DNA of 64,000 nucleotides from Jiangella asiatica (lineage in GTDB: Bacteria; Actinomycetota; Actinomycetes; Jiangellales; Jiangellaceae): positions 1 through 64,000 of the forward strand of contig NZ_SMKZ01000025.1 in the NCBI RefSeq assembly GCF_004349065.1, read 5' to 3'. The position numbers were made by a program, and so were the translations under genes. The number at the start of each line of letters is the position of its first letter. Position 1 is the stretch's first letter. The notes under the pieces are model-generated. The model saw nothing but the letters and a program-made list of their open reading frames with translations. It was not told the DNA's origin and ran no database searches. Of the stretch, positions 19,277 through 45,343 are shown piece by piece.

Positions 19277-19323
19277 CAGGCGTCAAACCCCGAAGTCGCA
19301 TGGTCGTCGTCAAGGAGGACGTC

Positions 19324-20643: not shown

Positions 20644-20683
20644 CCCCGGCAGAGCCGCCCCGGCCCGTCACGAAGGCAACCGC

Positions 20684-21565: not shown

Positions 21566-21566
21566 C

Positions 21567-24386: not shown

Positions 24387-24494
24387 GTCTGCTCCGATCG
24401 ATGGCGACCCCGGTCGCCGGCATCGCGATTCGCTAACGAAAGGATATTCATCCAGCAGCGGATCGGCCAGTCGCCGGGCCGGGACGGTCCCGGA

Positions 24495-29076: not shown

Positions 29077-29120
29077 TTGACACGCGATGGCGGATCTGGT
29101 CGGATTGAAACGTGTCAATC
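29077..29120 (+). promoter_or_regulatory. Promoter overlapped by a perfect LacI-type operator
   Basis: TTGACA (29077-29082) and TCGGAT (29100-29105) are 17 bases apart. The 18-base site GATTGAAACGTGTCAATC (29103-29120) has perfect 6-base arms (GATTGA/TCAATC) and the TTGAAACG core of LacI operators. It covers the -10 box, the expected start point and the GTG at 29112, so it would repress directly. It also lies upstream of the minus-strand gene. Confidence 0.65.
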
Positions 29121-31214
29121 CATCCTACCGTCCCGGCCGTGGACCGCCGGGATCTCGTCGATCGGCACCGCGTCCATCTCACCGCCGCAGCTCCCGAGTC
29201 GCCGCTCAGCGTCGGCAACGGAGACTTCTGCTTCACCGCGGACTGCACCGGACTCCAGACCCTCGCCGACTGGCACACCCGGGCCAGCGCGAGGCGCGAC
29301 GAGCGCAGCGCCACACCGCTCGGGACGCAGTCCTCGTGGGCCTTCCACTGGGCGCCGAACCCGGACGGAGTGACGCTGGCCGACACCGAGCGGCAATACC
29401 CCGACCCGGCCGGTCGCGAGCTGAGCTTCCCGACGGCGTACGACTGGCGGCTGTCCGACGAGGAGGCCCGGCGCCTCCAGCCCGCGGGGCACTACTTCTG
29501 GACCAACCCGCAGCGGCTGCATCTCGGCCGGGTCGCCTACGTGCTCCGCTCGCCGGACACGCGTGCTCCCGTCGTGACCCCGGGGCCGATCGACGACGTC
29601 GACCAGACGCTCGACCTGTGGACCGGTATCTTGACCAGCGCCTTCTCCCTCGAGGGGCGGCGCACCACCACCCGTACCGCCGTCCATCCGCACCGTGACG
29701 TCCTCGCCGTGCACGCCGCGTCCGGCCTGTTCGCCGGCGGCGACGCCCGGCTGCGGGTCTCGTTCGGCGCCGTGGACGACACCTTCGAAGCCGAGGAACG
29801 CACGGACGACCCCGACGCGCACCGGAGCATCGTCGAGCTGACCGACGCGCGCACCGTCGTCGTCCGGCGGGCCGTCGACGACGCCTGCTACGTCGTGCGC
29901 GCACACGTGGTGGGCGCCTCGTTCGAGCACACCGACCGCCACGCGCTCGACGTCGTGCCCGAGGGCGACGGCGTCCACCTGGTGGTGGAGTTCACCCCCG
30001 GGCCGTCCGACGAGCCGCTGCCCAGCGCGGCGGCGGTCTTCGCGGAATCCGAGCGGCACTGGGAGCGCTTCTGGCGCTCCGGGGCCGTGGTCGACTTCAG
30101 CGGCAGCAGCGACCCCCGCGCGGGCGAGCTCGAACGCCGCGTGGTCCTGTCGCAGTACCTCACCGCGATCCAGTGCGCGGGGACGCTGCCGCCGCAGGAG
30201 AGCGGCCTGGTCTGCAACTCGTGGGCCGGCAAGTTCCATCTCGAGATGCACTGGTGGCACGCGGCGCACTTCCCGATGTGGGGCCGGCCCGAGCTGCTCG
30301 AGCCGAGTCTGGAGTGGTACCGGTCGATCCTCCCCGTCGCCCGGCGCAACGCCGAGCGCAACGGCTACCGCGGGGCGCGCTGGCCGAAGCACGTCGGCCC
30401 GGAGGGGGTCGAGAGCCCCAACGACATCGGGCCGCTGCTGGTGTGGCAGCAGCCGCACCCGGTGTACTTCGCCGAGCTCGTGTTCCGCGCCCGCGGCGAC
30501 GACCCGGCCGTACTGGAGGCCTACGGCGACCTCGTCGACGAGACCGCGGAGTTCCTCAGCTCGCTGCTGTGGTGGCGCGACGGCGAGGCGCACCTCGCAC
30601 CGCCGGTCATGCCGGCACAGGAGCGCTACGAGGCCGCCACGACCTGGGACCCGACGTTCGAGCTCGCCTACGTCGCGTGGGCCCTGGGCGTCGCGTGCGA
30701 GTGGCGCCGGCGGCGTGGGCTGGAGGTCCCCGACGCGTGGGAGCGCGCCATCACGGGCATGGCGCCGCTGCCGACGGCGGACGGGCGCTACGAGGCCGTC
30801 CGCGGGCAGTGCGCCGTCATCGACCACCCGTCGCTGCTGGGGGCGCTCGGGTTCGTACCGGACTCGCCGCTCGTCGACCGCGACACCATGTCAACCACCC
30901 TCGACTGGGTCCTCGAGGCCTGGGACTGGCGGACGACGTGGGGCTGGGACTTCCCGCTGATCGCCATGTGCGCCCGCGAGCTCGGGCGGCTCGACCTCGC
31001 GTTCGACACGCTCCTGTCGCCGCGGCCCCGCAACCGCTACCTCGCGAACGGGCACAACTTCCAGGTGCCGAACCGGCTCCCGCTGTACCTGCCGGGCAAC
31101 GGCGGGCTGCTCGCGGCGATCGCGATGCTGGTCACGGACAAGACCGGCACCGTCGTCGCGGACCTGCCCGACGGCTGGGTCGTCCGGGCCGACGGCTTCC
31201 CACCGCGCCCTTAG
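29112..31214 (+). CDS. Six-hairpin (alpha/alpha)6 glycoside hydrolase-like protein
   Basis: This 700-residue protein has an N-terminal beta-sandwich (about 20-310) followed by an (alpha/alpha)6 barrel (about 330-690), the layout of GH65/GH95-like enzymes. Conserved-looking acidic motifs include WAGKFHLEMHWWHAAHFPMWGRPE and WGWDFPLIAMCARELG. The GTG at 29112 lies seven bases after the -10 box, so the mRNA is probably leaderless; GTG 29139 is the alternative. No signal peptide is seen. The family cannot be fixed by eye, and the substrate is probably a glycoside imported by one of the two ABC systems. Confidence 0.75.
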   Translation: MSIHPTVPAVDRRDLVDRHRVHLTAAAPESPLSVGNGDFCFTADCTGLQTLADWHTRASARRDERSATPLGTQSSWAFHWAPNPDGVTLADTERQYPDPAGRELSFPTAYDWRLSDEEARRLQPAGHYFWTNPQRLHLGRVAYVLRSPDTRAPVVTPGPIDDVDQTLDLWTGILTSAFSLEGRRTTTRTAVHPHRDVLAVHAASGLFAGGDARLRVSFGAVDDTFEAEERTDDPDAHRSIVELTDARTVVVRRAVDDACYVVRAHVVGASFEHTDRHALDVVPEGDGVHLVVEFTPGPSDEPLPSAAAVFAESERHWERFWRSGAVVDFSGSSDPRAGELERRVVLSQYLTAIQCAGTLPPQESGLVCNSWAGKFHLEMHWWHAAHFPMWGRPELLEPSLEWYRSILPVARRNAERNGYRGARWPKHVGPEGVESPNDIGPLLVWQQPHPVYFAELVFRARGDDPAVLEAYGDLVDETAEFLSSLLWWRDGEAHLAPPVMPAQERYEAATTWDPTFELAYVAWALGVACEWRRRRGLEVPDAWERAITGMAPLPTADGRYEAVRGQCAVIDHPSLLGALGFVPDSPLVDRDTMSTTLDWVLEAWDWRTTWGWDFPLIAMCARELGRLDLAFDTLLSPRPRNRYLANGHNFQVPNRLPLYLPGNGGLLAAIAMLVTDKTGTVVADLPDGWVVRADGFPPRP

Positions 31215-31317: not shown

Positions 31318-31344
31318 CGATCGCGGACACGGTGGTCGCGCGGC

Positions 31345-32172
31345 TCAGCCCTTCACCGCTCCGGACGTCACGCTGCTCATCACCATGCGGCGGAAGAACA
31401 GGAACAGCACGATCAACGGGATGGTCGCGAGCAGCGTCGCGGCCATGACGACCGGGTAGTCGCTGGTGCCGTGGGTGCCGTTGAGCTGCTGCAGCGCCAC
31501 CGGGAGCGTGTAGAGGGCGGAGTCGTTGAGGACGAGCAGCGGCCATAGGTACTCGTTCCAGTTCCACATGAACTGGAACACCGTGAAGCCCGCGATGGCC
31601 GGCCGCAGCGCCGGCACGCCGACGTGCCAGAAGACGCGGAGGAACCCGGCGCCGTCGACGCGCGCGGCCTCGATCACCTCGTATGAGACCGCCTCGCGGG
31701 CGGCCTGGCGCATCCAGAAGATGCCGAACGCGCTGGCCGCTCCCGGGACGATCAGCGGGAGGTAGGTGTTGATCCAGCCGAGGTCGACGTAGATCTGGAA
31801 CATCGGAACCAGCATGACGCCGGTGGGCAGCGTCATCGTCACGAGCAGGATCGCGAACAGCCAGTCGCGGGCGGGGAACCGGAACATCGCGAACACGAAG
31901 CCCGAGAGCGCCGCGATGGTGACGGTGACGGCGGTGGCGACGACGGACACGAACACCGAGTTGAGGAACGCCTGGTGGAAGTCGACGCTGTCGAACAGCC
32001 GGCCGATGTTGGCGACGAGCTGGCTGCCGGGGATGAGCCGGGGCGGGCTGCCGAAGATGTCCGACGTCCGGCTCGTCGACATCACGACCAGCCAGTAGAA
32101 CGGGAACGCGAACAGGGCGGCGGCCGGGACCAGCACGAGGTGCTGGACCCACATCCGTGGGCGGGACTTCAC
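31345..32172 (-). CDS. ABC sugar importer permease, MalG type (second system)
   Basis: This 275-residue permease has six helices and the coupling loop YEVIEAARVDGAGFLRVFWHVGVPALRPA. GTG 32172 overlaps the stop of the MalF-type gene (GTGA), showing translational coupling. It is the third gene of the operon that starts with the binding lipoprotein at 34416. Confidence 0.93.
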   Translation of the reverse strand: MKSRPRMWVQHLVLVPAAALFAFPFYWLVVMSTSRTSDIFGSPPRLIPGSQLVANIGRLFDSVDFHQAFLNSVFVSVVATAVTVTIAALSGFVFAMFRFPARDWLFAILLVTMTLPTGVMLVPMFQIYVDLGWINTYLPLIVPGAASAFGIFWMRQAAREAVSYEVIEAARVDGAGFLRVFWHVGVPALRPAIAGFTVFQFMWNWNEYLWPLLVLNDSALYTLPVALQQLNGTHGTSDYPVVMAATLLATIPLIVLFLFFRRMVMSSVTSGAVKG

Positions 32173-33128
32173 GACAGCTCCTTCCGGCGCTTTGCGATGA
32201 CCCTGGCGTTGAGGACCGCGAGCAGGATGAGCACGACGAAGATGCCCCAGCCGATGGCGGTGGCGAACCCGAGGTCGGTCGGGACGGTCTGCAGCGTCGC
32301 GCCCATGTACCGCACCTGGAGGAACATCATCGTGACCACTGAGTCGTTCGGGCCGCCCAGCCCGTTGGTCAGCACCTGCGGCTCGGTGAAGATCTGGAAG
32401 CCGCTGATCGTGCCGGTGACGGCGACGAAGGCCACGGTGGGCAGGATCATGGGGATCGTGATCGAGCGCAGGATGCGCCAGGAGCCGGCGCCGTCGAGCC
32501 GGGCCGCTTCGTACAGCGTCGGCGGGATCGACGAGATACCCGCGAGAAAGATGACCACGAAGTAGCCGAAGCTCCGCCAGAAGATCATGATCGAGACGAC
32601 CAGGCGGACGCCCCACTCGGTGGTCATCCAGGGAACCGACGACAGTCCGACCCCCTCGAGGATCGCGTTGATGATGCCGTACTCGTTGGAGAACAGCGAC
32701 TGGAACACGATCGCGACCGCCACGATCGAGGTCACCTGTGGCAGGAAGAACATGGTCTGGTACAGGCCGCGGGCGCGCAGTTTCGGCGAGCTGAGCAGCG
32801 CCGCGGCACCCAGGGACGCGAGGATGACGGGGACCTGCGCGGTCAGGAAGATGATGACCGTGTTGCCGAGGGCGTGCGTGAACTCGCCCGAGGAGAACAG
32901 CCGGACGAACTGGTCGGGCCCGACCCATTCGATGTCGCCGAGGCCGTCCCACGACACCATCGACAGGTAGACGGCGAACAGGAGCGGGAACAGGCCGAAC
33001 GCGGCGAAGAGGATGAAGAACGGCGAGATCGCGAGGTACTCCCGCCAGTAGCGCAGGAGCGACCTGCGCTTTCTGAGCTGAGGCGTCGTCGTCTTCCCGG
33101 GGCGTCGCGTCGTTGCGGTCTGCGTCAT
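32169..33128 (-). CDS. ABC sugar importer permease, MalF/LacF type (second system)
   Basis: This 319-residue permease has a basic N-terminal tail, a first helix at about 32-54 (AISPFFILFAAFGLFPLLFAVYL), a P2-loop with the WVGPDQFVRLF segment, and the coupling loop PTLYEAARLDGAGSWRILRSITIPMILP. ATG 33128 follows GGAGG. It pairs with the permease downstream and the lipoprotein upstream. Confidence 0.93.
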   Translation of the reverse strand: MTQTATTRRPGKTTTPQLRKRRSLLRYWREYLAISPFFILFAAFGLFPLLFAVYLSMVSWDGLGDIEWVGPDQFVRLFSSGEFTHALGNTVIIFLTAQVPVILASLGAAALLSSPKLRARGLYQTMFFLPQVTSIVAVAIVFQSLFSNEYGIINAILEGVGLSSVPWMTTEWGVRLVVSIMIFWRSFGYFVVIFLAGISSIPPTLYEAARLDGAGSWRILRSITIPMILPTVAFVAVTGTISGFQIFTEPQVLTNGLGGPNDSVVTMMFLQVRYMGATLQTVPTDLGFATAIGWGIFVVLILLAVLNARVIAKRRKELS

Positions 33129-34579: not shown

Positions 34580-36085
34580 ATGTCCCATGAGCTCTATCGA
34601 CCGATCGAGCTGTCCTTCGAGGGAGACACCGTTATCCCGGCGGACCGAACGCCGCTGTGGGTGCGCTTCACCCACGAGTCCGCCGGTGAGCACGTGCTTC
34701 CCGGGTTCTGGGACGGCGAGCGGACCTACCGCGTCCGGTTCGCGCCGGAGGAGACAGGCACGTGGACCTGGCGCAGCGAGAGTGCCGAGGACCCCGCGCT
34801 CGCCGGCGTCGAGGGGACGTTCGACGTCGTCGCGGGCGGGGAGCATGGTCCGGTCCGGGTCGCCAACCGGTTCCATTTCGCCCACGCCGACGGGACGCCG
34901 TTCCGGCCCGTGGGCACGACCGCCTACAACTGGCTGCACCAGGACGAGCCGCTCTTCTCCGAGACGGTGGACGCCGTCGCCGACGCCGGGTTCAACAAGC
35001 TGCGGTTCATGGTCTTTCCGCAGGCCGGCGGCTACATCGAGCACACCCCCGAGCTGTTCCCGTTCGAGCGGACGGACGGGAAGTGGGACGTGACGCGGCC
35101 GGTGATCCCGTTCTTCCGGCGCCTCGACGCCGCCGTCGAGGCGCTGGGGCGTCGCGGCGTCCAGGCGGATGTCCTGATCTTCAACGCCTACGACCGCGGC
35201 TACTTCGGGCTCAACGAGCTCACCGAGGACGAGGACGACGTCTACCTGCGGTACCTCGTGGCTCGGCTGGCGGCGCATCCGCACGTGTGGTGGTCGCTGT
35301 GCAACGAGTTCGACCAGCTCCAGCGGCCCGCCCGGCGGTGGGACCGTGCCGGGCATCGCCTGGCCGAGCTCGACCCGCACGCGCACCTGCGCTCGATCCA
35401 CAACTGGGTCGAGCTCTACGACAACAACCAGCCGTGGGTCACGCACGCCTCGATCCAGAACGGGTCGGCGACCACCGAGTTCGGCCGCGCGAACCTGTAC
35501 CGCGACGTCTACGGCAAGCCCGTCGTGCTGGACGAGATCAAGTACGAGGGCGACATCCCCGAGCGCTGGGGCCGGCTGACGGCCCGGCAGCTCGTCGACC
35601 AGTTTTGGATCGCGACTGTCTCGGGGTGCTACGCCTCGCACGGCGAGAGCTTCGTCACCAAGAGCGGCAGCCTGCACATGGTCGAGGGCGGCCCGCTGCG
35701 TGGGGAGTCGCCCGCGCGGCTGCGGTTCCTGCGCGGCATCCTCGAGGACCTCGTCGTTCCCGGCCTCGACCCGATCGACAAATGGGACGACCCCGCGCAC
35801 GCGGCCGGCGTGTCGCGCCGCCAGTACGTGCAGTACCTCGGTGCGTCGGCGCCGCGGACGTGGGCGTTCCGCCTTCCCGTCGGGGTCCCCGGCGAACGGC
35901 CGGAGCCCGGCGACGTCTTCGAGGTCGACGTCATCGACACCTGGAACATGACGGTGACGCGCGTCGACCGCCGGTTCACCCTCACCGAAGTCCTGCGCAA
36001 GGACGCCTACGATCGTGACTGCGCCCCGCTGGAGCTGCCGCACGGAGAGGCGATCGCACTGAGGATCACGCGAGTCGAGGACTGA
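34580..36085 (+). CDS. DUF5060-DUF4038-like-DUF5605 glycosidase, candidate apiosidase (GH140-like)
   Basis: This 501-residue protein starts with a DUF5060 beta-sandwich (about 1-85; WDGERTYRVRFAPEETGTWTWRS). A TIM barrel follows (about 100-400; FRPVGTTAYNWLHQ, LRFMVFPQ) and then a DUF5605-type beta domain (about 410-501). Likely catalytic residues are E243 in WWSLCNEFDQ and E319 in VVLDEIKYEGD, as in clan GH-A. DUF4038-type barrels include GH140 apiosidases. ATG 34580 follows AAAGGGAG. No signal peptide. The GH42 gene begins one base after its stop. The apionate pathway nearby supports an apiose-releasing role, which is an inference. Confidence 0.75.
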   Translation: MSHELYRPIELSFEGDTVIPADRTPLWVRFTHESAGEHVLPGFWDGERTYRVRFAPEETGTWTWRSESAEDPALAGVEGTFDVVAGGEHGPVRVANRFHFAHADGTPFRPVGTTAYNWLHQDEPLFSETVDAVADAGFNKLRFMVFPQAGGYIEHTPELFPFERTDGKWDVTRPVIPFFRRLDAAVEALGRRGVQADVLIFNAYDRGYFGLNELTEDEDDVYLRYLVARLAAHPHVWWSLCNEFDQLQRPARRWDRAGHRLAELDPHAHLRSIHNWVELYDNNQPWVTHASIQNGSATTEFGRANLYRDVYGKPVVLDEIKYEGDIPERWGRLTARQLVDQFWIATVSGCYASHGESFVTKSGSLHMVEGGPLRGESPARLRFLRGILEDLVVPGLDPIDKWDDPAHAAGVSRRQYVQYLGASAPRTWAFRLPVGVPGERPEPGDVFEVDVIDTWNMTVTRVDRRFTLTEVLRKDAYDRDCAPLELPHGEAIALRITRVED

Positions 36086-36086
36086 C

Positions 36087-38177
36087 ATGCCGGAGGCCAC
36101 CGGAGACCGCTTGCACGCCTGGCGGGCGGGGCCGCGCCTCGGCGCGGCCTACTACAACGAGTACCTGCCGGACCCGGACCGGCTGGCGGAGGACCTGTCG
36201 CTGATGCGTGCCGCCGGCATCACCTGCATCCGGGTCGGTGAGTCGGTGTGGTCGACCTGGGAGCCGTCCGACGGCCGGTTCGACCTGGACTGGCTCACCC
36301 CGGTGCTCGACGGCGCCGCCGAGCACGGCATCGACGTGATCCTCGGCACCCCCACCTACGCGGTGCCGCCGTGGCTGAGCCGGAAGCATCCCCAGCTCGC
36401 CGTCGTCGGCCGGAACGGGCGGACGGTGCCGTGGGGCGCACGGCAGGAGGTCGACTACACCTCCGAGCTGTTCCGCGGGTACGCCGAGCGGGTGATCCGG
36501 GCGGTGCTCGGCAGGCACGGCCGCCACCCCGCCGTCGTCGGCGTTCAGCTCGACAACGAGCCGGGCCTGCACCTCATCCACAACGACCATGTCGTCGAGC
36601 GCTTCCGCACGTGGCTGGCCGACCGGTACGGCGACGTCGACGCCCTCAACCGGGCCTGGGGGCTCGCGTACTGGTCGCACCGGCTGTCGGGGTGGGACGA
36701 CCTGTGGACGCCGGCCGGCAACACCACACCGGCGTACGACCTGGCCTGGCGGCGCTTCCAGGCCGAGCTCACCGCGGAGTTCGTCGGCTGGCAGGCCGGC
36801 ATCGCGCGTGAGCTCCTCGGGCCGGAGACGTTCCTCACGACGTGCATGGCCTACCAGCGCCCGGCCATGGACGACGTCGCCGTCGGCTCGGTGCTGGACG
36901 TCGCCAGCGGCAACGCGTACTACCTGGCGCAGGACGCTCTGCACGCGGTCCGCGACGGTGCCGGTGGCCGGTGGTACGCCGACGACGTCGCCCAGCTGGT
37001 CCTCATGGCCGACCGGATGCGAGCCACCCGCGACGACGCCTTCCTGATGACCGAGACCGGCGCCGCTTCGATCGGCCCGGCACACCTGACGCGGCCACCG
37101 TACGCCGGCCAGCTCGCCCAGGTGGCGTGGCTGCTCGTCGCGCGGGGCGCCCGGCTCGTGTCGTACTGGCACTGGCACACCCTGCACTCCGGCGCCGAGG
37201 TGCATTGGGGCGGGATCCTCGGGCACGGCCTGCGGCCGGGACGCGTCTACGACGAGATCGCCGGCATCGGCCGTCAGTTCGCCGCCGCCGCGCCGTGGCT
37301 CGCCGACGCCGAGGCCGAAGCGGGCGTCGGGATCGTCTACGCCCACGACAGCGAGTGGATGATGGCGTTCGAGCCGCCGCTGCCCGGGCCGGGGGAGTCC
37401 GGCGACCGGGGGTCCTATGCGCGCATCGTGGGCGCGTTCGGTCGGGCCGTGCTGGACGCCGGACACCAGGCGGCGTTCGTCAACGAGCGCCAGCTCACCG
37501 ATGCCGGCGACCTGCTCCGCCGGTTCCCCGTCGTGGTCGTGGCTGGCCTGATCGCGGCGTCGGACCGCACGCTGGCGCTCCTCGCGGAGTACGTCGAGGC
37601 GGGCGGCCGGCTCGTCGTCGGCCCGCGAACCGGCTACGGCGACGACGAGGGCCGGATGCGGGCGACGTCGCCGGCCCCGGCGGTGCTGCACGACCTCGCC
37701 GGCGCGGGCTACGAGGAGTTCGCGGCGCTGGCCGAGCCGGTTCCCGTCGAGTTCGACGGCGCGACGGGTGAGGCGCGCGGGTGGATGGACGCGCTCGTCG
37801 CCGAGGACGCCGAGGCCGTGGCGCGGTACCGGCACCCGCATTTCGGGACCTGGGCGGCGGTCACCCGCCGGCAGGTCGGCCGCGGCGAGGTGACCGTGGT
37901 GGGAACGCTGCTCGACCGGACGCTCCTGGCCCGGGTCGTCGCCGAGGCGGCCGGCGCCGTGTCACCGGAGCCGCCCCTTTCGGTCGAGCCGCTCGAGGTG
38001 ACGGCACACTCGGTCGTCGGGCCACGGGGCCGGGTCTGGGTCGTGCACAACTGGGCGCCGGAGCCTCGTTCCGCGCGCCTGGAACGAGCGGTGGCCTCCG
38101 TCGTCGACGACTGCCGCCACGACGCGGGCGCGTCGGTCACCCTCGAGCCGTGGGCCGTCCGGGTGTGGCGGGAGTGA
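36087..38177 (+). CDS. Glycoside hydrolase family 42 beta-galactosidase
   Basis: This 696-residue protein follows GH42: TIM barrel (about 1-390) starting YYNEYLPDPDRLAEDLSLMRAAGITCIRVGE, with acid/base E158 in GVQLDNEPGLH and nucleophile E323 in FLMTETGAAS. A trimerisation (class-I-glutamine-amidotransferase-like) domain and a C-terminal beta domain follow. No signal peptide. GH42 enzymes split beta-galactosides and sometimes alpha-L-arabinopyranosides. It is coupled to the GH140-like gene. Its 3' end overlaps the convergent apnL gene by 41 bases. Confidence 0.92.
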   Translation: MPEATGDRLHAWRAGPRLGAAYYNEYLPDPDRLAEDLSLMRAAGITCIRVGESVWSTWEPSDGRFDLDWLTPVLDGAAEHGIDVILGTPTYAVPPWLSRKHPQLAVVGRNGRTVPWGARQEVDYTSELFRGYAERVIRAVLGRHGRHPAVVGVQLDNEPGLHLIHNDHVVERFRTWLADRYGDVDALNRAWGLAYWSHRLSGWDDLWTPAGNTTPAYDLAWRRFQAELTAEFVGWQAGIARELLGPETFLTTCMAYQRPAMDDVAVGSVLDVASGNAYYLAQDALHAVRDGAGGRWYADDVAQLVLMADRMRATRDDAFLMTETGAASIGPAHLTRPPYAGQLAQVAWLLVARGARLVSYWHWHTLHSGAEVHWGGILGHGLRPGRVYDEIAGIGRQFAAAAPWLADAEAEAGVGIVYAHDSEWMMAFEPPLPGPGESGDRGSYARIVGAFGRAVLDAGHQAAFVNERQLTDAGDLLRRFPVVVVAGLIAASDRTLALLAEYVEAGGRLVVGPRTGYGDDEGRMRATSPAPAVLHDLAGAGYEEFAALAEPVPVEFDGATGEARGWMDALVAEDAEAVARYRHPHFGTWAAVTRRQVGRGEVTVVGTLLDRTLLARVVAEAAGAVSPEPPLSVEPLEVTAHSVVGPRGRVWVVHNWAPEPRSARLERAVASVVDDCRHDAGASVTLEPWAVRVWRE

Positions 38178-39852
38178 CCTGGAAGCTTCGCCACGACAGT
38201 GCTGGCAGGACCACCCGCCGCTCGCGACCGTCGAGCGACACCGCGATCGTCCGCGTGGCGATGTCGAGGTTGGACGTGAACACGACGTCGTGATCGCCGT
38301 GGCGGGCGCCGACGGCCCAGACGAGCCCGTCCGGGCTCTCGCCGTGGAGGGCTCTGGCGCCCGCGGCCGCAGCCAGGTGGCTGATCGCCGTCGCGACGGG
38401 GAACGGGTCGCAGGAGGCCGAGCGGACACCGCGAGGCCCCCACTCCTCGAAGTAGGTGAGGCTCGCCACGCCCGGTACCGCGAGCGCGGCGGCGCTCGCG
38501 ATGGTCCAGGCCGCCAGCTCCGGCGCCTGCTGTCGCGGGTCGACGGCATCGGTGGGCTCGGAGCCGGTGGTCGCCGCGTCGTTGAACCGCGGGCGCAGCG
38601 TGATCGGGCCGACGTGGACGGGTGTGCCGCGTGCGTACGAGACCGTCTGTCGGGCCACGAGCCGCTGCATCGCGACCGACTCGACGAGCTGGTCGGTGCT
38701 GAGCTCGTGAAACAGCGGCGTCAGGGCGACGGTGAGCCCGGCGAGCTCGTCCGGGAGGTCCCCGCGCCGGCGGTTCAGCTCGGTGAAGTGCGAACGTGAG
38801 CCGCCGACGACGGGGACCGTCGCCCCGGCCGTCGTCAGCGCATCGCGCAGTGCTGCCACGAGGACCGCCTCGGACACGTGCGACGCGGTGCCGAAGGCGG
38901 CGACCCGGAGGACCGCGTGCGTTCGCAGCCGTCGCGCGAGCTCGTGCAACAGTCCGCCAGGGGGTGGCACGGGGAGGATCACGCGGACGTCGAGCGGCAG
39001 CCCGCGTCCGGCGGCCCGGGCGAGCTCGGCCGGCCAGGTCGACATCGCGAGGTCCAGCTCCACCAGCAGCGACCGGCCGATCCGCGACAGGCCGTCCGGC
39101 TCCGGGTCGGGGGCCGTCGAGGCGGCGACCCCGACCGCGGGGAACGGCCCGTCGGGGGTCAGCTCGATGCGCTCGCGTGGTGGATGGACGGTGACGGACG
39201 GCGCTCCGGAGACGGTCACCGTCACGCTCTGGCGAACCCGCTCACCTGGGGCCAGACGATAGGGGAACGGCAGGCACAGCGGGCGGCTGTAGGTCTTGAA
39301 CGAGGCATCGGTCCAGTTGCGCTGGTCCTCCATCTCGAAGACGTCGCCGGTGAACTCGACGGCGACACGAAGCCCGTCGTCGTCCCAGGCCAGCGCCGCG
39401 ATGTCGGACGCGGGCTGGTGCGGGCTGATGTCGGCCGGGAACCTCGTCGACTCACGCGACCCGTCGGGGTGGGTGACAGTGAGCCTCGTGCCGGCCAGCC
39501 GGGGCGGATGCAGCACGACCAGGCCGGTGCGGTTGGTCTCGAACTCCCGGTCCGACACCGCGTCGAACTCGACCGACAAGATGCCTCCGCGTGCGTGCAC
39601 ACGGAGCGTGCCGGACAGGCCGGCGCCGAAGCTCAGCGACCGCACCGGGACCTCGAGGGTGTCGCCGTCGTCGCCGCCGGTGATCGGGCCGAGGGTCCAC
39701 TCGCCGGTCCGCCAGTCCCGGTCCCGCAGGACGGCGCGGACGCCGCGCAGCACCGGCCGGTCCTTCCAGGCCAGGTCCGCGAGCTCGTCGCCACGCAGCT
39801 CGAGCGACCACGGCCCGCTGCGCCACATCCTGGACCGCGCGTGCGAGAACAC
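38137..39852 (-). CDS. apnL: Candidate D-apionolactone lactonase (D-apionate lactonase)
   Basis: This 571-residue protein fits the D-apionate lactonase family. It has an N-terminal beta domain (about 1-220), a TIM-barrel-like middle part (about 225-470) with VALTPLFHELSTDQLVE and PVHVGPITLRPRFN, and a C-terminal domain (about 475-571). The known reaction hydrolyses D-apionolactone, from apiose oxidation, to D-apionate. It is the last gene of the six-gene operon and starts at GTG three bases after the apnO stop (ATG 39828 is the alternative). Assignment rests on recalled family motifs plus the very strong context. Confidence 0.8.
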   Translation of the reverse strand: MFSHARSRMWRSGPWSLELRGDELADLAWKDRPVLRGVRAVLRDRDWRTGEWTLGPITGGDDGDTLEVPVRSLSFGAGLSGTLRVHARGGILSVEFDAVSDREFETNRTGLVVLHPPRLAGTRLTVTHPDGSRESTRFPADISPHQPASDIAALAWDDDGLRVAVEFTGDVFEMEDQRNWTDASFKTYSRPLCLPFPYRLAPGERVRQSVTVTVSGAPSVTVHPPRERIELTPDGPFPAVGVAASTAPDPEPDGLSRIGRSLLVELDLAMSTWPAELARAAGRGLPLDVRVILPVPPPGGLLHELARRLRTHAVLRVAAFGTASHVSEAVLVAALRDALTTAGATVPVVGGSRSHFTELNRRRGDLPDELAGLTVALTPLFHELSTDQLVESVAMQRLVARQTVSYARGTPVHVGPITLRPRFNDAATTGSEPTDAVDPRQQAPELAAWTIASAAALAVPGVASLTYFEEWGPRGVRSASCDPFPVATAISHLAAAAGARALHGESPDGLVWAVGARHGDHDVVFTSNLDIATRTIAVSLDGRERRVVLPALSWRSFQVTPATPGRPTARG

Positions 39853-39855
39853 CCG

Positions 39856-40719
39856 CTAGCGCTCGATCGTGTCGAGGTGCAGCATGCGGGCCAAGTTCTT
39901 GTCGAGCTCGTCGTCGCGGAAGACCTTCTTCCAGTCATCCTTGACGATGCTCTCGCGGCCGTAGTCCATCGCGATGAGGCACGCGTCGCTGAACGGGTTG
40001 TCGCCGCGCAGGCCATTCGCCAGCGCCACCTGGGTGTGGCCGAGCAGGATGCTGCGGGCGGCGGGCTCGGGAACGCCCATCGTGCGCACGGCCTCGTCGA
40101 GGGCCTCCTTCAGCAGCGCGCCGACCATGCACGCGATCGTCTCGACCAGCGTCGGTTCCAGCTGGGCGAGCTGCTTGACGGTGACCCAGTGGACGTCGAC
40201 CACCGGTGCGTAGATGGCACGCACGGTGGTCTCGACGATCGCCGCGGCGGCCGGGTCGTCGGACTCGATCGCGGCGATCGCGTCCTGTGGTGCCGCGATG
40301 CCGCCGAAGGTGTCGGCGTACTCCTCGGGGGTCGTGCGCCGCAGGAAGATCGACGGGTGACACGGGTGGGCGACGGCCTGGGTGAGGTCGTCCCGGGTCG
40401 TGAGCAGTCCCGCGTACGCGGCGGCGGGGTCCAGCGTGAGGGCGACGCAGCCGGGCCGCATCTGCGGCACCAGCTCGGCGGTCACGGACCGCAGCGCGAG
40501 GTCGGGCACCGCGAACACGACGATGTCGGCGTCGGCGACGGCGGTCGAGGCGTCGGTCAGCTCGCGTCCGGCGTCGAGCGTGCGCTGCTGCCCGGCGCGG
40601 GAGTTCTCGACGTAGCGGACCCGGTGAGGCGTCTTCACGAGGTTGTTCGAGATGCGCATCCCCATCTTGCCGCCGGCTCCGATGACGGCGATGGTGAGGA
40701 CGTCGGTGGGCGCTGTCAT
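39856..40719 (-). CDS. apnO: Candidate D-apionate oxidoisomerase
   Basis: This 287-residue protein has a Rossmann nucleotide site (IAVIGAGGKMGMRISNN, glycines within 14-20) and a helical C-terminal domain of the 6-phosphogluconate-dehydrogenase-like type (KQLAQLEPTLVETIACMVGALLKEALDEAVRTMGVPEPAARSILLGHTQVAL). This is the pattern recalled for ApnO, which converts D-apionate with NAD+ to 3-oxo-isoapionate. ATG 40719 follows AGGAG and overlaps the oiaC stop (ATGA). Neighbouring lactonase, decarboxylase, kinase and isomerases all fit this assignment. Confidence 0.85.
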   Translation of the reverse strand: MTAPTDVLTIAVIGAGGKMGMRISNNLVKTPHRVRYVENSRAGQQRTLDAGRELTDASTAVADADIVVFAVPDLALRSVTAELVPQMRPGCVALTLDPAAAYAGLLTTRDDLTQAVAHPCHPSIFLRRTTPEEYADTFGGIAAPQDAIAAIESDDPAAAAIVETTVRAIYAPVVDVHWVTVKQLAQLEPTLVETIACMVGALLKEALDEAVRTMGVPEPAARSILLGHTQVALANGLRGDNPFSDACLIAMDYGRESIVKDDWKKVFRDDELDKNLARMLHLDTIER

Positions 40720-41510
40720 GGTGTGCTCCTGAGGTAGTCGAGGGTGATGCGGGTCCAGTCCCGCTCGGTCCGGACGGTGGTCGGTGCGTCGCCCTGCCAC
40801 GGCAGCCAGTGCTCGACGATCTCGTTGATGCCCCGCTCGCGCGGCCGCACGGTGTCGAGCAGGTGCGGGTAGTCGTGCAGCCCGGAACCCATCGGCGCGC
40901 CGCCGTAGGTGAACCCCACCCAGCCCGGCTGCCGCGCGAAGGCGAAGTCCTTGACGTGCACGTTGGCCACGTGGCCGGCCGTCAGCTCGACGGCATCGCG
41001 CGGCCGTTCCAGCCTGGCCACCACGTTGCCGGGGTCCAGGCAGATCCCGAGGCGCTCGGTTCCGAGCGACGACACGAGCGCGACCAGGTGGTCCGTCGGG
41101 ACCTGCTCGTACGTCTCCAGGGCCAGAGTGACCCCGGCCGCCTCGTACGCCGGCAGGGCGGCGCCGAGCCAGTCCTTCGCCTCGGCGAGCGTCGGGCGTG
41201 AGTCCGGGCCGTTGAGCATGCTGCGTACGAGCCGGGCGTCGAACCGGTCGGCGAGATCCAGGAAGCGGGTGAGCCGGCCGGGCTCGATCCCCTTCGTGCC
41301 CAGCTCGATCGTCAGGCCCAGGTCGCGTGCGGCCGCCGCGGCGCGCCGCAGGTCGGCGTCATCCATGGTCTCCAACGGCGCGTAGTCGCAGATCTGGAAC
41401 AGCTCCACGCCCAGCTCGCGGGTCGCCTGGAACGCGCCGACCAGCGACAGCGGCTCGTCGACGCGGTCGGAGTGCTGCCAGAAGAAGGCGTACGTCCCGA
41501 GCCCGATCAT
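40716..41510 (-). CDS. oiaC: Xylose isomerase-like TIM barrel, candidate 3-oxo-isoapionate decarboxylase
   Basis: This 264-residue AP-endonuclease-2/xylose isomerase-type barrel has likely metal ligands E132 (LETYEQ), D159 (CLDPGN), H185 (NVHVKDF) and E230 or E233 (GINEIVEHW). OiaC is the family member that decarboxylates 3-oxo-isoapionate to L-erythrulose. The gene sits between apnO and the erythrulose-phosphate isomerase genes, with four-base overlaps on both sides. A sugar isomerase or epimerase function is the alternative, but the order kinase-isomerase-isomerase-this-apnO-apnL makes the decarboxylase role likely. Confidence 0.8.
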   Translation of the reverse strand: MIGLGTYAFFWQHSDRVDEPLSLVGAFQATRELGVELFQICDYAPLETMDDADLRRAAAAARDLGLTIELGTKGIEPGRLTRFLDLADRFDARLVRSMLNGPDSRPTLAEAKDWLGAALPAYEAAGVTLALETYEQVPTDHLVALVSSLGTERLGICLDPGNVVARLERPRDAVELTAGHVANVHVKDFAFARQPGWVGFTYGGAPMGSGLHDYPHLLDTVRPRERGINEIVEHWLPWQGDAPTTVRTERDWTRITLDYLRSTP

Positions 41511-42292
41511 GCGCGGTCCGGGACCGGTGAGCGGCGCGACGCGAGCGTGGCAGCCTCGTCGACGACCGCGGCCAGCGCGTCGGTGTCGTGGGCGAACCGG
41601 CCGAGGAAGAGGCCGTCGACGCAGACGCCCAGCTCGGTGAGGAGACCGGGGCCGGCGGACCCGCCGTAGATGACGGTGCTGCCTGCCCGGCCGGGCATCG
41701 TGTCCAGAGCCGTGCGCAGCGCGCGACTCACGGCGGTGATGTGCGCGGGCGGTGCCGGTTCCGCGGCCGCGATCGCCCACACCGGCTCGTAGGCGACGAT
41801 CACCGGGCCATCCGGGGTCCGGTCGAGCCCGGCGTGCACCTGCGCGACGGCAGCGGCCGCGGCGCCGTCCGTGGCGAGCCGGTCGGCCTCACCGACGCAC
41901 AGCACCGGGGTCAGGCCGTGGCGCAGCGCCGCGGCGCTCTTGGCGGCGACGTCGTCGTCCGTCTCGCCGAACAGCCGCCGTCGCTCGGCGTGTCCGACCT
42001 CGGCCAGACGCACGCCGACCTCTGCCAGCTCGGCGGCGCTCACCTCGCCGGTGAAGGCGCCGGTGTCGTGGCCGGCAACGTCCTGCGCACCAACCCGGAC
42101 GTTCGTGCCGGCGAATGTCGCGAGGGCCGGCAGGAGCTGCAGATAGGTGGGCATCACGAACAGCCCGACCGCGCCCGAGGCGACGGCGGGATGCGCCCGT
42201 GCGAGTGCGGCGACCCGCTCGCACCACTCGGCGGCCCGGCGATGACCGAAGTACATCTTCAGGCTCACCCCCACGGCGACCGCCGCGGCCAT
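41507..42292 (-). CDS. lerI: Triosephosphate isomerase homologue, candidate L-erythrulose-1-phosphate isomerase
   Basis: This 261-residue TIM homologue keeps the catalytic Lys (K12 in SLKMYFGH), His (H101 in VGHAERR) and Glu (E169 in VAYEPVWAIA). It differs at the first motif, where glycolytic enzymes have NWKMN. LerI proteins are TIM paralogues that turn L-erythrulose 1-phosphate into D-erythrulose 4-phosphate. ATG 42292 overlaps the derI stop by one base and its own stop overlaps oiaC. Operon context argues against a second glycolytic TPI. Confidence 0.85.
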   Translation of the reverse strand: MAAAVAVGVSLKMYFGHRRAAEWCERVAALARAHPAVASGAVGLFVMPTYLQLLPALATFAGTNVRVGAQDVAGHDTGAFTGEVSAAELAEVGVRLAEVGHAERRRLFGETDDDVAAKSAAALRHGLTPVLCVGEADRLATDGAAAAAVAQVHAGLDRTPDGPVIVAYEPVWAIAAAEPAPPAHITAVSRALRTALDTMPGRAGSTVIYGGSAGPGLLTELGVCVDGLFLGRFAHDTDALAAVVDEAATLASRRSPVPDRA

Positions 42293-42762
42293 CAGCAGGA
42301 CCCCGTCGTCTCGAACTCGTCGAGGACCGCCACCTTCGCCGCCGACGCGGACTCGGGATCGAACCGGTACGAAAGCCATTCCCGGACGAGCCGGCGAGCC
42401 AGCTCGATGCCGATGACGCGCTGACCCATCGCGAGCACCTGGGCGTCGTTGGAGAGGACGGAGCGCTCCACCGAGAAGCTGTCGTGCGCGGTCACGGCGC
42501 GGATTCCGGGCACCTTGTTCGCGGAGATCGCGACGCCGAGCCCGGTGCCGCAGATCAGCAGGCCGCGGTCGACGTCGCCGGCGGCGATCCGTTTCGCGGC
42601 TTCGATGGCGACCTTCGGGTACGGGGTGTGGCCGTCGGCGTCCACGCCCATGTCGACGACGGAGGCGACCCCGGGATGCTGCTCGAGGTCGCGCTTGAGG
42701 GTCTCCTTGTAGTCGAAGCCGGCGTCGTCGCTGCCGATGACGATCCGCAGGGGCTGGAGCAC
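42292..42762 (-). CDS. derI: RpiB-like isomerase, candidate D-erythrulose-4-phosphate isomerase
   Basis: This 156-residue RpiB/LacAB-type protein has the catalytic cysteine C71 in [13 protein letters not shown]. The usual GSDHAG motif reads GSDDAG (residues 10-15). DerI enzymes of this family isomerise D-erythrulose 4-phosphate to D-erythrose 4-phosphate, which enters the pentose phosphate pathway. GTG 42762 follows AGGAAGGA. The gene lies one base after the kinase stop and overlaps lerI. Ribose-5-phosphate isomerase activity is the alternative; pairing with a TIM paralogue supports DerI. Confidence 0.85.
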
Positions 42763-42763
42763 G

Positions 42764-44506
42764 TCAGGTCCTTCCTGAGTCGTCGAGCACGACCGCCACG
42801 GCGGCGACCACGAGGGCGAGGGAGTGGGCGCCAGGGTCCGGGGTGCCCAGGCTCCGCTCGGCGTGCGGGCGGGCGCGACCCACCCGGGGAAGCAGGTCGG
42901 CGGTGGCGGCGGCCGCACGGGCCGCCGCACCGGCCGCGTCTGTCCACGCGGCAGCAAGGGACGCCCCGGCCTCGGCGGCCCGGGTCAGCTCGGTGCTGAA
43001 CGGGACGAGCGCGTCGACGAGGGTCTTGTCGCCCACCGCAGCCTTGCCGAACATCATGACTTCCTGCGTCGCGGCGGCAACACCGGCGGCGACGTCGACG
43101 GCGGACGGCTTACGCGTGTCGCCGAGCCTGGCGGCGACGGCGCAGAGCATGACGCCCCACAGCGCGCCCGAGGTTCCGCCGGCGCGTTCGGACCACGCGT
43201 CGGCCGCGTGTTGCAGCGTCGTGCGGGCACCGGCACCCGCCGTCGCCGCGTCGGCCGCCGCGGCGAGGGCGGCGTGCGCGCCGCGCCGCATCCCGATGCC
43301 GTGGTCGCCGTCCCCGGCGATCTGGTCGAGCCGGCCCAGGTCGTCCGCGTGCGTGTCCATCGTCCGGGCGGTGGCCTCCAGGACGGCGCGGACCGTCTCG
43401 GCGGCGGCGCGGGACTCCTCGTCCGCCGGCGGGACGGTGACCGGGCCGCCGGCGGAGGTCGTCACCGTCGTCGTCGCATCCTGTCGTGGCGCCGGTGCGA
43501 CCGCGCCGCGGCGGTACGCGGGTGTGTCGACGGGCGTGTCCCACAGCCGCTCCAGCTCGTCGTCGAGCCAGAACAGCGTCAGCGACGTGCCGGCCAGGTC
43601 GAAGCTCGTGCAGTACTCGCCCACGTGCGGGTCGACGACCTCGGCACCGGCCGCGTCGAGCAACTCCGCGACGCGGCGGTAGACGACGAACATCTCCTCG
43701 TACTTCAGCGAGCCGAGTCCGTTCAGGACTGGCACCACCCGCGCCCCGTCCGCCGTCGCCACGCCCTCCGGGAGCTCGTCGAGAAGCTGGCCGACCAGCA
43801 GGTCCGCGAGGCCGTCGGCGGTGGGCACGTCGGTCTCGTCGATGCCCGGCTCACCGTGGATGCCCAGCCCCACCGCCATCCGCCGGTCCGGGACGGTGAA
43901 CAGCGGCTCCTCGGCGCCCGGCAGCGTGCAGCCGCCGAACGCTACGCCGAACGACCGGGTTCGCTCGTTCGCCCGCCGCGCGATCTCGACCACACGGGTC
44001 AGGTCATAGCCGGTTTCGGCCGCGGCCGCCGCGGCGCGGAACACCGTCAGATCGCCGGCGATCCCGCGACGCTTGTGCTTCTCGGCCGGTGGTGCGCTGA
44101 AGATGTCATCGGTGACGACGACCGTCTCGCACGCGATGCCCTCCGCGCGCAGCTTGTCCTGCGCGGCGTCGAAGTTGAGCACGTCGCCGGCGTAGTTGCC
44201 GTAGCTCAGCAGCACGCCGCCACCACGGTGTGCCGCCGCCGCGACGGAGTACACCTGGGCTGCCGAGGGGGAGGCGAACAGGTTGCCCATCGCCGCACCG
44301 TGCGCGAGGCCCTGCCCGACCAGGCCGCCGAAGGCCGGATAGTGCCCCGAGCCGCCGCCGATCACCACCGCGACCTGCTGGTCGGGACTCACGGTGCTGC
44401 GCACCACACCGCCGGAAACCCGTCGCACGTACCGCTGGTGTGCCGTGACGAACCCCGCGATCATCTCGTCGGCGAAGTTGGCCGGGTCGTTCCACAGCCT
44501 GGTCAT
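42764..44506 (-). CDS. lerK: Dihydroxyacetone kinase-family protein, candidate L-erythrulose kinase
   Basis: This 580-residue single-chain ATP-type Dha kinase has DhaK at residues 1-330, with the substrate-binding histidine H217 in [10 protein letters not shown], and DhaL at about 365-575, with the nucleotide/Mg site [10 protein letters not shown] (residues 397-406). LerK proteins phosphorylate L-erythrulose to its 1-phosphate. As first gene of the operon with derI, lerI, oiaC, apnO and apnL, it would use the L-erythrulose made by OiaC. Dihydroxyacetone is a possible alternative substrate. The upstream region is shared with the divergent GntR gene. Confidence 0.88.
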
Positions 44507-44559
44507 CAGCCCTCCTCGGCTTCCGGTGCCGCTGGTCCGACCATACTGGCAAACCGGTT

Positions 44560-44581
44560 GACCGGTATTCAAGACCGGTAT
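44560..44581. promoter_or_regulatory. Direct-repeat operator between lerK and the GntR gene
   Basis: GACCGGTAT occurs twice, at about 44560-44568 and 44573-44581, 13 bases apart, within the short divergent region. The second copy ends ten bases before the regulator's GTG start, so the regulator would repress itself and the apionate operon. FCD-type GntR proteins commonly bind such short repeats. Confidence 0.55.
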
Positions 44582-44590
44582 CGTGGTCCG

Positions 44591-45343
44591 GTGCCCGCGT
44601 TCCGTACCGACCCCTCGTCCGACATCACGGCGGCACTCGGCACGCTCCCGGCGGCCACACCCGTCTCGGAGGTCGCTCGGCGGCTCCTCGACCTCTTCAC
44701 CAGCGGCGCGGTCGCGCCGGGGTCACGGCTGCCACCGGAGCGGCAGCTGGCGGCCACCCTCGGCGTCGGGCGCTCCGCCGTCCGGGAGGCACTCGCCGCG
44801 CTGGAGATCCTCGGGATCGTCGACGTGCGTGCCGGCTCGGGCACCTATCTGCGCGGCGCGGTCAGCGACCTGCTCCCGCAGACGCTGCGCTGGGGCCTGC
44901 TCGTCGGTGAGCGCAACACCGCCGAACTGCTCGAGCTGCGCTCCGGGCTGGAGATCTATGTGGCCCGCCTCGCGGCCAGCCGGGCCGACGCGTCCCAGCT
45001 CGACGCGATCGGCGAGCACCTCGAACGCATGCGGTCGTCGGTCGGCGACCTCGACGCCTTCGCCCGCGCCGACCGGGACTTCCACCAAGCCCTGGCCGAC
45101 GCCGCAGGCAACGCCACGCTGATCGACGTGCTGCACGTGGTGCGGTCGCTGCTCCAGGTTTATGCCGACCGCGCCGTGCACGACGACGAGCAGGCCCGGG
45201 TCGCGCTCGACGAGCACGACGCCGTCTTCCGGGCACTGCGCGACGGTGACGAGGACGCGGCGGCCTCGGCGATGGCGGTGCACATGGCGACCGCGTCCGC
45301 GCGCCTGGCGGCGGAAGCACGCTTGGAGTCGCCGCCGGCCTGA
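44591..45343 (+). CDS. GntR-family (FCD) regulator of the apionate operon
   Basis: This 250-residue FadR/FCD-type regulator has a winged helix at about 25-88 (GSRLPPERQLAATLGVGRSAVREALAALEILGIVDVRAGSGTYL) and an FCD effector domain at about 100-235 with metal/ligand residues in DRDFHQALADAAGNATL and HDAVFRALRDGDEDAA. FCD proteins usually sense small organic acids, which fits D-apionate or 3-oxo-isoapionate. GTG 44591 has no clear ribosome binding site, so the message may be leaderless. It is divergent from lerK. Confidence 0.92.
   Translation: MPAFRTDPSSDITAALGTLPAATPVSEVARRLLDLFTSGAVAPGSRLPPERQLAATLGVGRSAVREALAALEILGIVDVRAGSGTYLRGAVSDLLPQTLRWGLLVGERNTAELLELRSGLEIYVARLAASRADASQLDAIGEHLERMRSSVGDLDAFARADRDFHQALADAAGNATLIDVLHVVRSLLQVYADRAVHDDEQARVALDEHDAVFRALRDGDEDAAASAMAVHMATASARLAAEARLESPPA

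What the first reader, a model, noticed from the sequence alone, without database searches (positions are those of the whole stretch)
34580..36085. Candidate new-type apiosidase with DUF5060-TIM barrel-DUF5605 architecture
The protein has two well-placed catalytic glutamates (E243, E319), a DUF4038-like barrel related to GH140 apiosidases, and lies beside an importer and the apionate operon. It lacks a signal peptide, so it would act on imported apiosides, unlike secreted Bacteroides enzymes.
Basis: partly seen in the sequence, partly recalled or inferred. Interest (0 to 1): 0.7.

Follow-up and report, generated by a model that had tools for sequence, protein, structure and literature searches.

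The report
Intracellular apiosidase of a pectin locus
A soil actinobacterium carries a sugar-cleaving enzyme, only very distantly related to the known apiose-releasing enzymes, that most likely frees the rare plant sugar apiose inside the cell from imported fragments of the most complex plant pectin.

Summary
The ORF is real: 501 aa, DUF5060–PF13204 (Apiosidase-like)–DUF5605, with Glu243 and Glu319 invariant in 65 of 65 aligned rows. It folds as a clan-A barrel (pLDDT 94). The architecture is not new (solved, unassigned PDB entry 4N0R), but it lies far from GH140: no significant BLASTP match, Glu where GH140 has its catalytic Asp, and a different C-terminal domain. The strongest evidence is genomic: 28 of 80 relatives' loci hold genes of one of two known D-apiose routes within 10 kb (52 do not), and in 28 of 33 genomes with AptA-like genes one lies within 21 kb of the enzyme (0.3 expected). 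In four rhizobial operons it is the only annotated glycosidase beside importer and apiose genes. It has no signal peptide, so imported substrates fit. Qualifications: the window's lactonase is divergent, no D-apiose dehydrogenase is recognisable, and the wider cluster (GH78, GH42, aceric-acid-hydrolase-like GH127, two importers) points to rhamnogalacturonan-II fragments rather than simple apiosides. Activity is untested. In passing: a GH127–RuBisCO-like–kinase–racemase gene set that looks like an undescribed aceric acid pathway.

The parts
34580..36085 (+). Candidate apiosidase, 501 aa, DUF5060-PF13204-DUF5605, no signal peptide
34592..34783 (+). DUF5060 domain (residues 5-68)
   Evidence: coordinates by arithmetic
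34865..35635 (+). TIM-barrel catalytic domain, PF13204 Apiosidase-like (residues 96-352)
   Evidence: coordinates by arithmetic
35306..35308 (+). Codon of Glu243, predicted acid/base (N-E motif); aligns with the catalytic Asp position of GH140-type proteins
   Evidence: catalytic role inferred
35534..35536 (+). Codon of Glu319, predicted nucleophile; aligns with the catalytic Glu position of GH140-type proteins
   Evidence: role inferred
35783..36067 (+). DUF5605 C-terminal domain (residues 402-496)
   Evidence: coordinates by arithmetic
36087..38177 (+). GH42 (beta-galactosidase / arabinopyranosidase type), starting just after the candidate's stop
   Evidence: 265 bits
33181..34428 (-). Lipoprotein-like solute-binding protein of a sugar ABC importer, divergent from the candidate
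32169..33128 (-). ABC importer permease 1
31345..32165 (-). ABC importer permease 2 (C-terminal part of ORF 31345-32952; start approximate)
38137..39852 (-). D-apionate lactonase (ApnL)-like, divergent
   Evidence: 209.8 bits, cut-off 750; 30% to the rhizobial ApnL over 74% of it
39856..40800 (-). D-apionate oxidoisomerase (ApnO)-like dehydrogenase (domain from residue 36, start uncertain)
   Evidence: PGDH_C 191.8 bits; 5T57, 221.7 bits; that 5T57 is ApnO is recalled
40716..41780 (-). Xylose-isomerase-like TIM barrel, candidate 3-oxo-isoapionate decarboxylase (name inferred from place)
41507..42379 (-). Triosephosphate-isomerase-like (candidate erythrulose-phosphate isomerase, inferred)
42764..44572 (-). 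Dak1-Dak2 kinase (candidate L-erythrulose kinase, inferred)
44666..45343 (+). GntR/FCD regulator (domains within ORF 42824-45343; start approximate)
24495..27092 (-). GH78 alpha-L-rhamnosidase
   Evidence: 423.9 bits
27159..28034 (+). NAD-dependent epimerase/dehydratase-type SDR; one candidate for the missing apiose dehydrogenase (inferred)
   Evidence: 70-88% identical in L024-L029, L032, L034-L036
28048..29118 (-). GH43/GH32-like glycosidase
29112..31214 (+). Uncharacterised protein, weakly GH65-like
   Evidence: conserved in L034, L051, L113
17097..19088 (-). GH127, aceric acid hydrolase-like
   Evidence: NF049879 780.4 bits, cut-off 950; 5MQO 650.9 bits, next 348.1
15835..17100 (-). RuBisCO-like protein, OiaX-like
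   Evidence: (NF042437 400.3 bits, cut-off 700)
14580..16034 (-). Four-carbon acid sugar kinase, OiaK-like (domains from residue 71; true start uncertain)
   Evidence: (NF042436 269.9 bits, cut-off 700)
19300..22481 (+). Second sugar ABC importer (SBP and two permeases)
22486..23148 (+). Asp/Glu racemase-like protein
23406..24494 (-). Sugar-binding (SorC-type) transcription regulator
11562..14573 (+). GH2 LacZ-type beta-galactosidase (neighbour; membership of the cluster uncertain)

Best explanation
A cytoplasmic, retaining, exo-acting beta-D-apiosidase of the DUF5060-PF13204-DUF5605 architecture, outside GH140. An ABC importer brings in apiose-containing oligosaccharides, most likely fragments of rhamnogalacturonan II (RG-II) side chains. 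GH78 removes rhamnose from apiose, and this enzyme then cleaves the apiosyl bond with Glu243 as acid/base and Glu319 as nucleophile. The freed apiose is oxidised and enters the lactonase - oxidoisomerase - decarboxylase - kinase - isomerase series encoded next door. Shown: gene, domains, predicted fold, invariant residues, lack of a signal, and linkage to apiose catabolism across phyla. Inferred: catalytic roles, retaining mechanism, the apiosyl bond as the one cut, RG-II as source, the order of steps, and the identity of the dehydrogenase.
For: Domain scores over curated cut-offs. AF2 model pLDDT 94.1, pTM 0.92; VIA Z 54.1 to 4N0R, 28.9 to the GH140 apiosidase 8T9W, 28.5 to 5MSY/BT_1012. Profile alignment of the 65-row family with 10 PF12904-bearing GH140-type proteins: 97.7% probability, E243 opposite the catalytic Asp position and E319 opposite the catalytic Glu (the BT_1012 pair from PMC4032388 passages). 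Rhizobium johnstonii pRL12: importer, candidate, ApnL scoring 1060.9 bits (cut-off 750) and a dehydrogenase at 652 bits to 5UHW, with no other glycosidase annotated within 12 kb (the plasmid gene tables are incomplete); ApsD and ApnL matches also in L023, L163, L164. Monoglobus: isomerase, AptA, AptB, FGGY kinase directly upstream. AptA/AptB identity is anchored on E. coli SE15 genes of a cluster whose carriers grew on D-apiose (PMC13001218 passages). 28 of 80 loci hold apionate or Apt genes within 10 kb; 28 of the 33 genomes with AptA-like genes (of 50 searched) have one within 21 kb on the same contig, expected 0.335. RG-II link: aceric-acid-hydrolase-like GH127 and GH78 in the cluster; B. 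theta uses BT1012 on Api-GalA and an alpha-rhamnosidase on Rha-Api (PMC7939467 passages).
Against: No activity data. No recognisable D-apiose dehydrogenase in the window; the best genome hit to the rhizobial one is 36% with an in-frame stop. The window ApnL is divergent. The window's clade is split from the Apt-linked rest by a long branch (0.87), so specificity may differ. 52 of 80 loci, among them all 18 verrucomicrobial ones, show none of these genes within 10 kb (one of the 18, L056, has AptA at 11 kb; some of the 52 are short contigs). ManDH5, a GH5 mannanase, matches the whole length better than GH140 does (Z 31.7). Dyadobacter carries a GH140-type protein and this type in one cluster, so the two may not do the same job.
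Confidence: 0.72

Rival explanations
1. Same apiosidase activity, but on plant secondary-metabolite apiosides (apiin-type flavonoid glycosides, apiosyl-glucosides), not pectin fragments.
For: In four rhizobial loci (L018, L023, L163, L164) the operon holds importer, apiose genes and this enzyme, with no pectin enzyme annotated within 12 kb (gene tables incomplete).
Against: In the window and Microbacterium the cluster includes an aceric-acid-hydrolase-like GH127, GH78 and GH42; Dyadobacter has BT_1020-like, GH140-type and GH127 genes in the same cluster.
Confidence: 0.2
2. A clan-A glycosidase that cuts another bond of apiose-containing glycans (for example a mannosidase-like, galacturonidase-like or rhamnosidase-like step), with apiose released by a different enzyme.
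For: Whole-length fold match to the GH5 mannanase ManDH5 (Z 31.7); N-E acid/base motif (as in GH5, recalled) and not the G-D of GH140-type proteins; co-occurrence with a GH140-type protein in Dyadobacter.
Against: In four rhizobial loci it is the only annotated glycosidase beside the importer and the apiose genes; the window genome has no other PF13204 protein; no sequence match to ManDH5 at E 0.01.
Confidence: 0.15
3. The window clade changed specificity and acts on a different branched sugar whose acid is handled by the divergent ApnL-like/ApnO-like operon.
For: Long clade branch; ApnL-like at 209.8 of 750 bits; no ApsD.
Against: Both catalytic and many barrel positions are kept across the family, and the ApnO-like, kinase and isomerase genes resemble the apionate route (route recalled).
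Confidence: 0.1

Closest known systems
4N0R, BVU_0362 of Bacteroides vulgatus (unassigned putative glycoside hydrolase)
   Same: Same length and fold, 34-35% identity, Z 54.1 over 494 residues
   Different: Bacteroides protein whose solved chain begins at residue 24, which fits a removed leader; no function given in the entry title
GH140 apiosidases (BT_1012: 3KZS/5MSY; 8T9W) and the related 4QFU
   Same: PF13204 barrel, paired carboxylates at matching positions, Z 28.0-28.9
   Different: No significant BLASTP match (E 0.53 against a GH140-type protein that itself scores 442 bits to 3KZS); Glu in place of Asp; DUF5605 in place of PF12904; extra N-terminal DUF5060 domain
GH5 mannanase ManDH5 of Dictyoglomus (9GPE and others)
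   Same: Whole-length fold including the N-terminal domain, Z 31.7
   Different: 15% identity; not found by sequence profile at E 0.01; relatives' genomic setting shows apiose genes
D-apiose dehydrogenase/apionate and AptA/AptB transketolase pathways (Carter et al. 2018, recalled; growth on D-apiose in PMC13001218 and PMC11747546, passages)
   Same: Catabolic genes near this enzyme in rhizobia, Microbacterium, Paenibacillus, Monoglobus and others
   Different: Window version lacks a recognisable ApsD and has a divergent ApnL

Membership tests
DUF5060-PF13204-DUF5605 architecture (4N0R type) | All three domains in order above curated cut-offs | tested here: met
DUF5060-PF13204-DUF5605 architecture (4N0R type) | Full-length fold match to 4N0R | tested here: met
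   (TM 0.94, Z 54.1)
Clan GH-A | TIM barrel with acid/base Glu after Asn and nucleophile Glu late in the barrel (definition recalled) | tested here: met
   (N242-E243, E319 invariant); catalytic roles themselves untested
GH140 | Significant sequence similarity to BT_1012-type proteins | tested here: not met
   (profile-profile similarity only)
GH140 | Asp at the first catalytic position (BT_1012 Asp187) | tested here: not met
   Glu243 here. PMC4032388 passages give Asp in 82% and Glu in 17.3% of PF13204 proteins
GH140 | PF12904 C-terminal domain | tested here: not met
   (present in L126, absent here)
GH140 | Beta-apiosidase activity | not testable with these tools
   no assay
ApnL equivalog NF049900 (window 38137-39852) | Score over curated cut-off 750 | tested here: not met
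   (209.8); the rhizobial partner met it (1060.9)
Aceric acid hydrolase equivalog NF049879 (window 17097-19088) | Score over curated cut-off 950 | tested here: not met
   (780.4)
CAZy family assignment | Listing in a numbered GH family | not testable with these tools
   no CAZy library on hand

The most novel reading that the evidence does not exclude
The DUF5060-DUF5605 proteins form an apiosidase family separate from GH140 that replaces it, inside the cell, in Gram-positive rhamnogalacturonan-II loci; and the flanking GH127 - RuBisCO-like protein - kinase - racemase gene set is the catabolic route for aceric acid, the branched RG-II sugar acid, with the RuBisCO-like enzyme decarboxylating a beta-keto acid formed from it.
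Probability: 0.3. Interest if true: 0.75.

Novelty: new variant of a known kind. Interest (0 to 1): 0.55.

Why it matters
If right, it gives a function to a widespread domain architecture still labelled 'unknown', adds a second sequence lineage of apiose-releasing enzymes with a different acid/base residue, and explains how bacteria without GH140 use apiose-bearing pectin. It also bears on an annotation: in Lactobacillus jensenii, DUF4038/DUF5060 genes in a cluster with a rhamnosidase and an isomerase were read as amylase-like (PMC10711310, passages), which this evidence makes doubtful. Apiose-releasing enzymes are useful for RG-II analysis and for processing plant glycosides.

Tried and rejected
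Frames: the antisense frame of the ORF (open) and the ORFs 36066-37841 (-) and 38878-40737 (+) that overlap better-supported genes gave no Pfam match; I take them as artefacts of high G+C. ORF 31277-32152 is the wrong frame of permease 2.

Chance linkage: rejected (0.169 genomes expected within 10 kb, 19 seen; 0.335 within 21 kb, 28 seen; a simple uniform model). Caveats: the 80 loci are the best 80 of 578. For the whole-genome test I gave 50 of the 80 and left out 30, mostly on short contigs or from groups already represented. E. coli AptA hits at E above 1e-54 were dropped as other transketolases. Related genomes are not independent. Of the 33 genomes, five (L053, L076, L087, L088, L091) have no AptA within 21 kb on the same contig.

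Independent class sample: 12 of 393 genomes hold a match, the window's own among them. I fetched surroundings for 8 of the 12; apiose genes lay near a copy in 5 (G010, G177, G017, G213, and G388 beside a truncated copy) and not in 3 (G008, G121, G346). G043, G144 and G154 were not examined.

ApnO test: 10 of 50 genomes have one at E 1e-40; 6 within 14 kb on the same contig, one at 28 kb, one 255 kb away if on the same contig, two on other contigs.

Other: blastn of the candidate plus GH42 against plasmids gave 11 records, none covering 80%; no phage match. Literature: DUF5060 in one paper; in the listed titles and abstract openings of the apiosidase/DUF4038 search (30 of 31 papers), the apiose searches and the GH140 search (20 of 31) I saw no description of this architecture as an apiosidase; most subscription papers are not held. 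Carter et al. 2018 (not held) and Ndeh et al. 2017 are recalled, not read. PDB codes had no hit in the library. A last search for any two of apiosidase, ABC transporter, operon listed 10 of 7,297 papers, none with the word apiosidase.

Full report
1. The observation. The frame 34580-36085 (+) codes 501 aa. Pfam finds DUF5060 (5-68), Apiosidase PF13204 (96-352) and DUF5605 (402-496), each over its cut-off; GH5 Cellulase is below cut-off. It is the only PF13204 protein found in the host genome. The host is a Jiangella-like actinobacterium: G008 is placed in the same genus, and its contig of 36,647 bases matches in length and identity that of J. aurantiaca L038. The candidate is 87% identical there and 89% in G010. 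Glu243 and Glu319 are invariant in 65 of 65 rows.

2. Family. The nearest solved structure is 4N0R, an unassigned Bacteroides glycosidase (phmmer 7.6e-88; profile 684 bits, where 4N0R itself was one row of the profile). No GH140 chain appears at E 0.01 even with the 16-row profile. To test GH140 directly I took PF12904-bearing proteins from Dyadobacter and others. One of them, L126, scores 442 bits to 3KZS/5MSY and 311 to 8T9W and has PF13204 at 388 bits plus PF12904. BLASTP of the window protein against it gives E 0.53. Profile-profile comparison gives 97.7% probability at 16% identity over the barrel, with E243 opposite that protein's Asp213 and E319 opposite its Glu306. The BT_1012 pair is Asp187/Glu284 (PMC4032388, passages; equating the positions is my reading). 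So the protein is laid out like GH140 but fails three tested GH140 features.

3. Structure. AF2 with 60 rows: mean pLDDT 94.1, pTM 0.92. Foldseek and VIA rank 4N0R first (Z 54.1), then ManDH5, a GH5 mannanase, over the full length (Z 31.7), then 8T9W, 5MSY, 4QFU and 3KZS over about residues 88-501 (Z 28.0-28.9), then GH5 mannanases. Fold alone does not choose between apiosidase and mannanase.

4. Neighbourhood in the window. To the right, on the minus strand: Dak1-Dak2 kinase, TIM, xylose-isomerase-like, ApnO-like and ApnL-like genes. On the plus strand, GH42 follows the candidate. Divergently to the left lie a solute-binding protein and two permeases. The ApnO-like protein matches 5T57 at 222 bits (that 5T57 is ApnO is recalled). 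The lactonase scores only 209.8 against a cut-off of 750. No D-apiose dehydrogenase of the rhizobial type is found in the window at E 1e-8. Microbacterium relatives have an SDR between the ApnL-like and ApnO-like genes (hits) that the window lacks. The step from apiose to apionolactone is thus the gap in the window pathway.

5. Relatives elsewhere. On rhizobial plasmids the enzyme sits between two permeases and a UgpC ATPase, downstream of a ribose-type importer, a Gfo/Idh dehydrogenase, a 'hypothetical protein' and DhaK/DhaL (without the kinases). In pRL12 the 'hypothetical protein' is ApnL by curated model (1060.9 bits) and the dehydrogenase is 652 bits to 5UHW (that 5UHW is D-apiose dehydrogenase is recalled). 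ApsD and ApnL matches are in 4 of 6 hyphomicrobial plasmid loci examined (L018, L023, L163, L164; not L020, L022). In Monoglobus pectinilyticus the enzyme follows an isomerase, two transketolase halves and an FGGY kinase. The last three correspond to aptA, aptB and the kinase of E. coli SE15 (46%, 33%, 36%), genes of a cluster whose carriers grew on D-apiose (PMC13001218, passages).

6. How often. Of 80 named loci, 9 hold apionate genes and 19 hold AptA/AptB within 10 kb: 28 of 80 (26 of the 59 loci of at least 20 kb). In 50 whole genomes, 33 have an AptA-like gene at E 1e-54 or better. In 28 of these one lies within 21 kb on the same contig: 19 within 10 kb, and 9 further ones where the same enzyme gene was found again in the fetched contig. 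Chance expectation is 0.335 genomes. The 28 span Actinomycetota, Bacillota, Bacteroidota, Planctomycetota, Pseudomonadota and Verrucomicrobiota (origins). Against: 52 of 80 loci, all 18 verrucomicrobial ones among them, show none within 10 kb. The window's own clade (18 of 92 rows) is linked to the apionate type only and sits on a long branch (a quick tree whose own checks warn of long branches).

7. Location. In the 16 window-clade rows scanned no leader is seen; 24 of 27 Verrucomicrobiota and Bacteroidota rows, and some sphingomonads, have a leader-like N-terminus.

8. Substrate. The cluster reaches from about 14.6 to 44.6 kb. It includes GH78, GH42, a GH43/GH32-like and a weakly GH65-like protein, a second importer, and a GH127 that matches the aceric acid hydrolase model at 780 bits (cut-off 950) and 5MQO at 651 bits. 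PMC10850190 (passages) names BT1003 the aceric acid hydrolase; that 5MQO is BT1003 is recalled. Aceric acid and apiose both occur in RG-II (PMC12168206, PMC7939467, passages). In B. theta, BT1012 cuts Api-GalA and BT1001, an alpha-rhamnosidase, cuts Rha-Api. GH78 homologues lie within 10 kb of the candidate type in 21 of 80 loci. In Dyadobacter the enzyme shares a cluster with GH140-type, BT_1020-like and GH127 genes and AptA. RG-II fragments are therefore the likeliest source in this clade; rhizobial operons without annotated pectin enzymes leave room for simple apiosides.

9. Verdict. A candidate apiosidase outside GH140, with strong linkage evidence and no biochemical proof. The architecture is known; I did not find the functional assignment in the listings of my searches. 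New variant of a known kind.

10. A second lead. The GH127, RuBisCO-like and kinase genes are contiguous in the window. They recur next to each other in L030, L033, L035, L037 and L117 and in L165-L169. With the racemase beside them they also recur in three genomes of the host's genus that lack the candidate enzyme (G011, G015, G009: L174-L176), where no apiose gene was hit in the 17-20 kb fetched. In G359 (L177) the contig ends near the kinase. The window's kinase and RuBisCO-like proteins fall far below the OiaK and OiaX cut-offs. Tracking the GH127 rather than apiose genes, they may handle aceric acid, whose ketose form would be a beta-keto acid suited to such a decarboxylase (inference). 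Among the 11 papers found, none holds 'aceric acid catabolism' or 'aceric acid metabolism'.

Noticed in passing
window 14580-19088 (-) and 22486-23148 (+); L165-L169, L174-L177: GH127 (aceric-acid-hydrolase-like), RuBisCO-like and OiaK-like genes form a unit, with an Asp/Glu-racemase-like gene nearby, also in genomes of the host's genus without the apiosidase candidate; candidate aceric acid catabolic gene set.
   Followed up: partly
window 38137-40800; L025, L034, L121, L157, L158: Microbacterium-type loci have an SDR between ApnL-like and ApnO-like genes; the window and G010 lack it there, so the apiose dehydrogenase step is unassigned.
   Followed up: partly
window 29112-31214 (+); L034, L051, L113: 700-aa protein without a Pfam family over cut-off, weakly GH65-like, conserved near the apiosidase type in Microbacterium sp. 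B35-30 (67%) and Pseudoduganella flava (43%).
   Followed up: partly
18 of 80 loci, between L043 and L083: A DUF6298 protein recurs near the apiosidase type in Verrucomicrobiota, Bacteroidota and a planctomycete, often with a xylose-isomerase-like gene or GH127.
   Followed up: no
G388:C3 (L121), G017:C15 (L005, L007), J. aurantiaca L038: Apparently decaying copies: a truncated DUF5060 enzyme beside an apionate operon, a copy split over two frames, and a GH42 match of only 20% of its length after an intact enzyme.
   Followed up: no
PMC10711310 (Lactobacillus jensenii cluster): DUF4038 and DUF5060 genes in a cluster with an alpha-rhamnosidase and an isomerase are discussed there as GH13/GH14 amylase-like; the present evidence suggests an apiose-related role (passages).
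   Followed up: no
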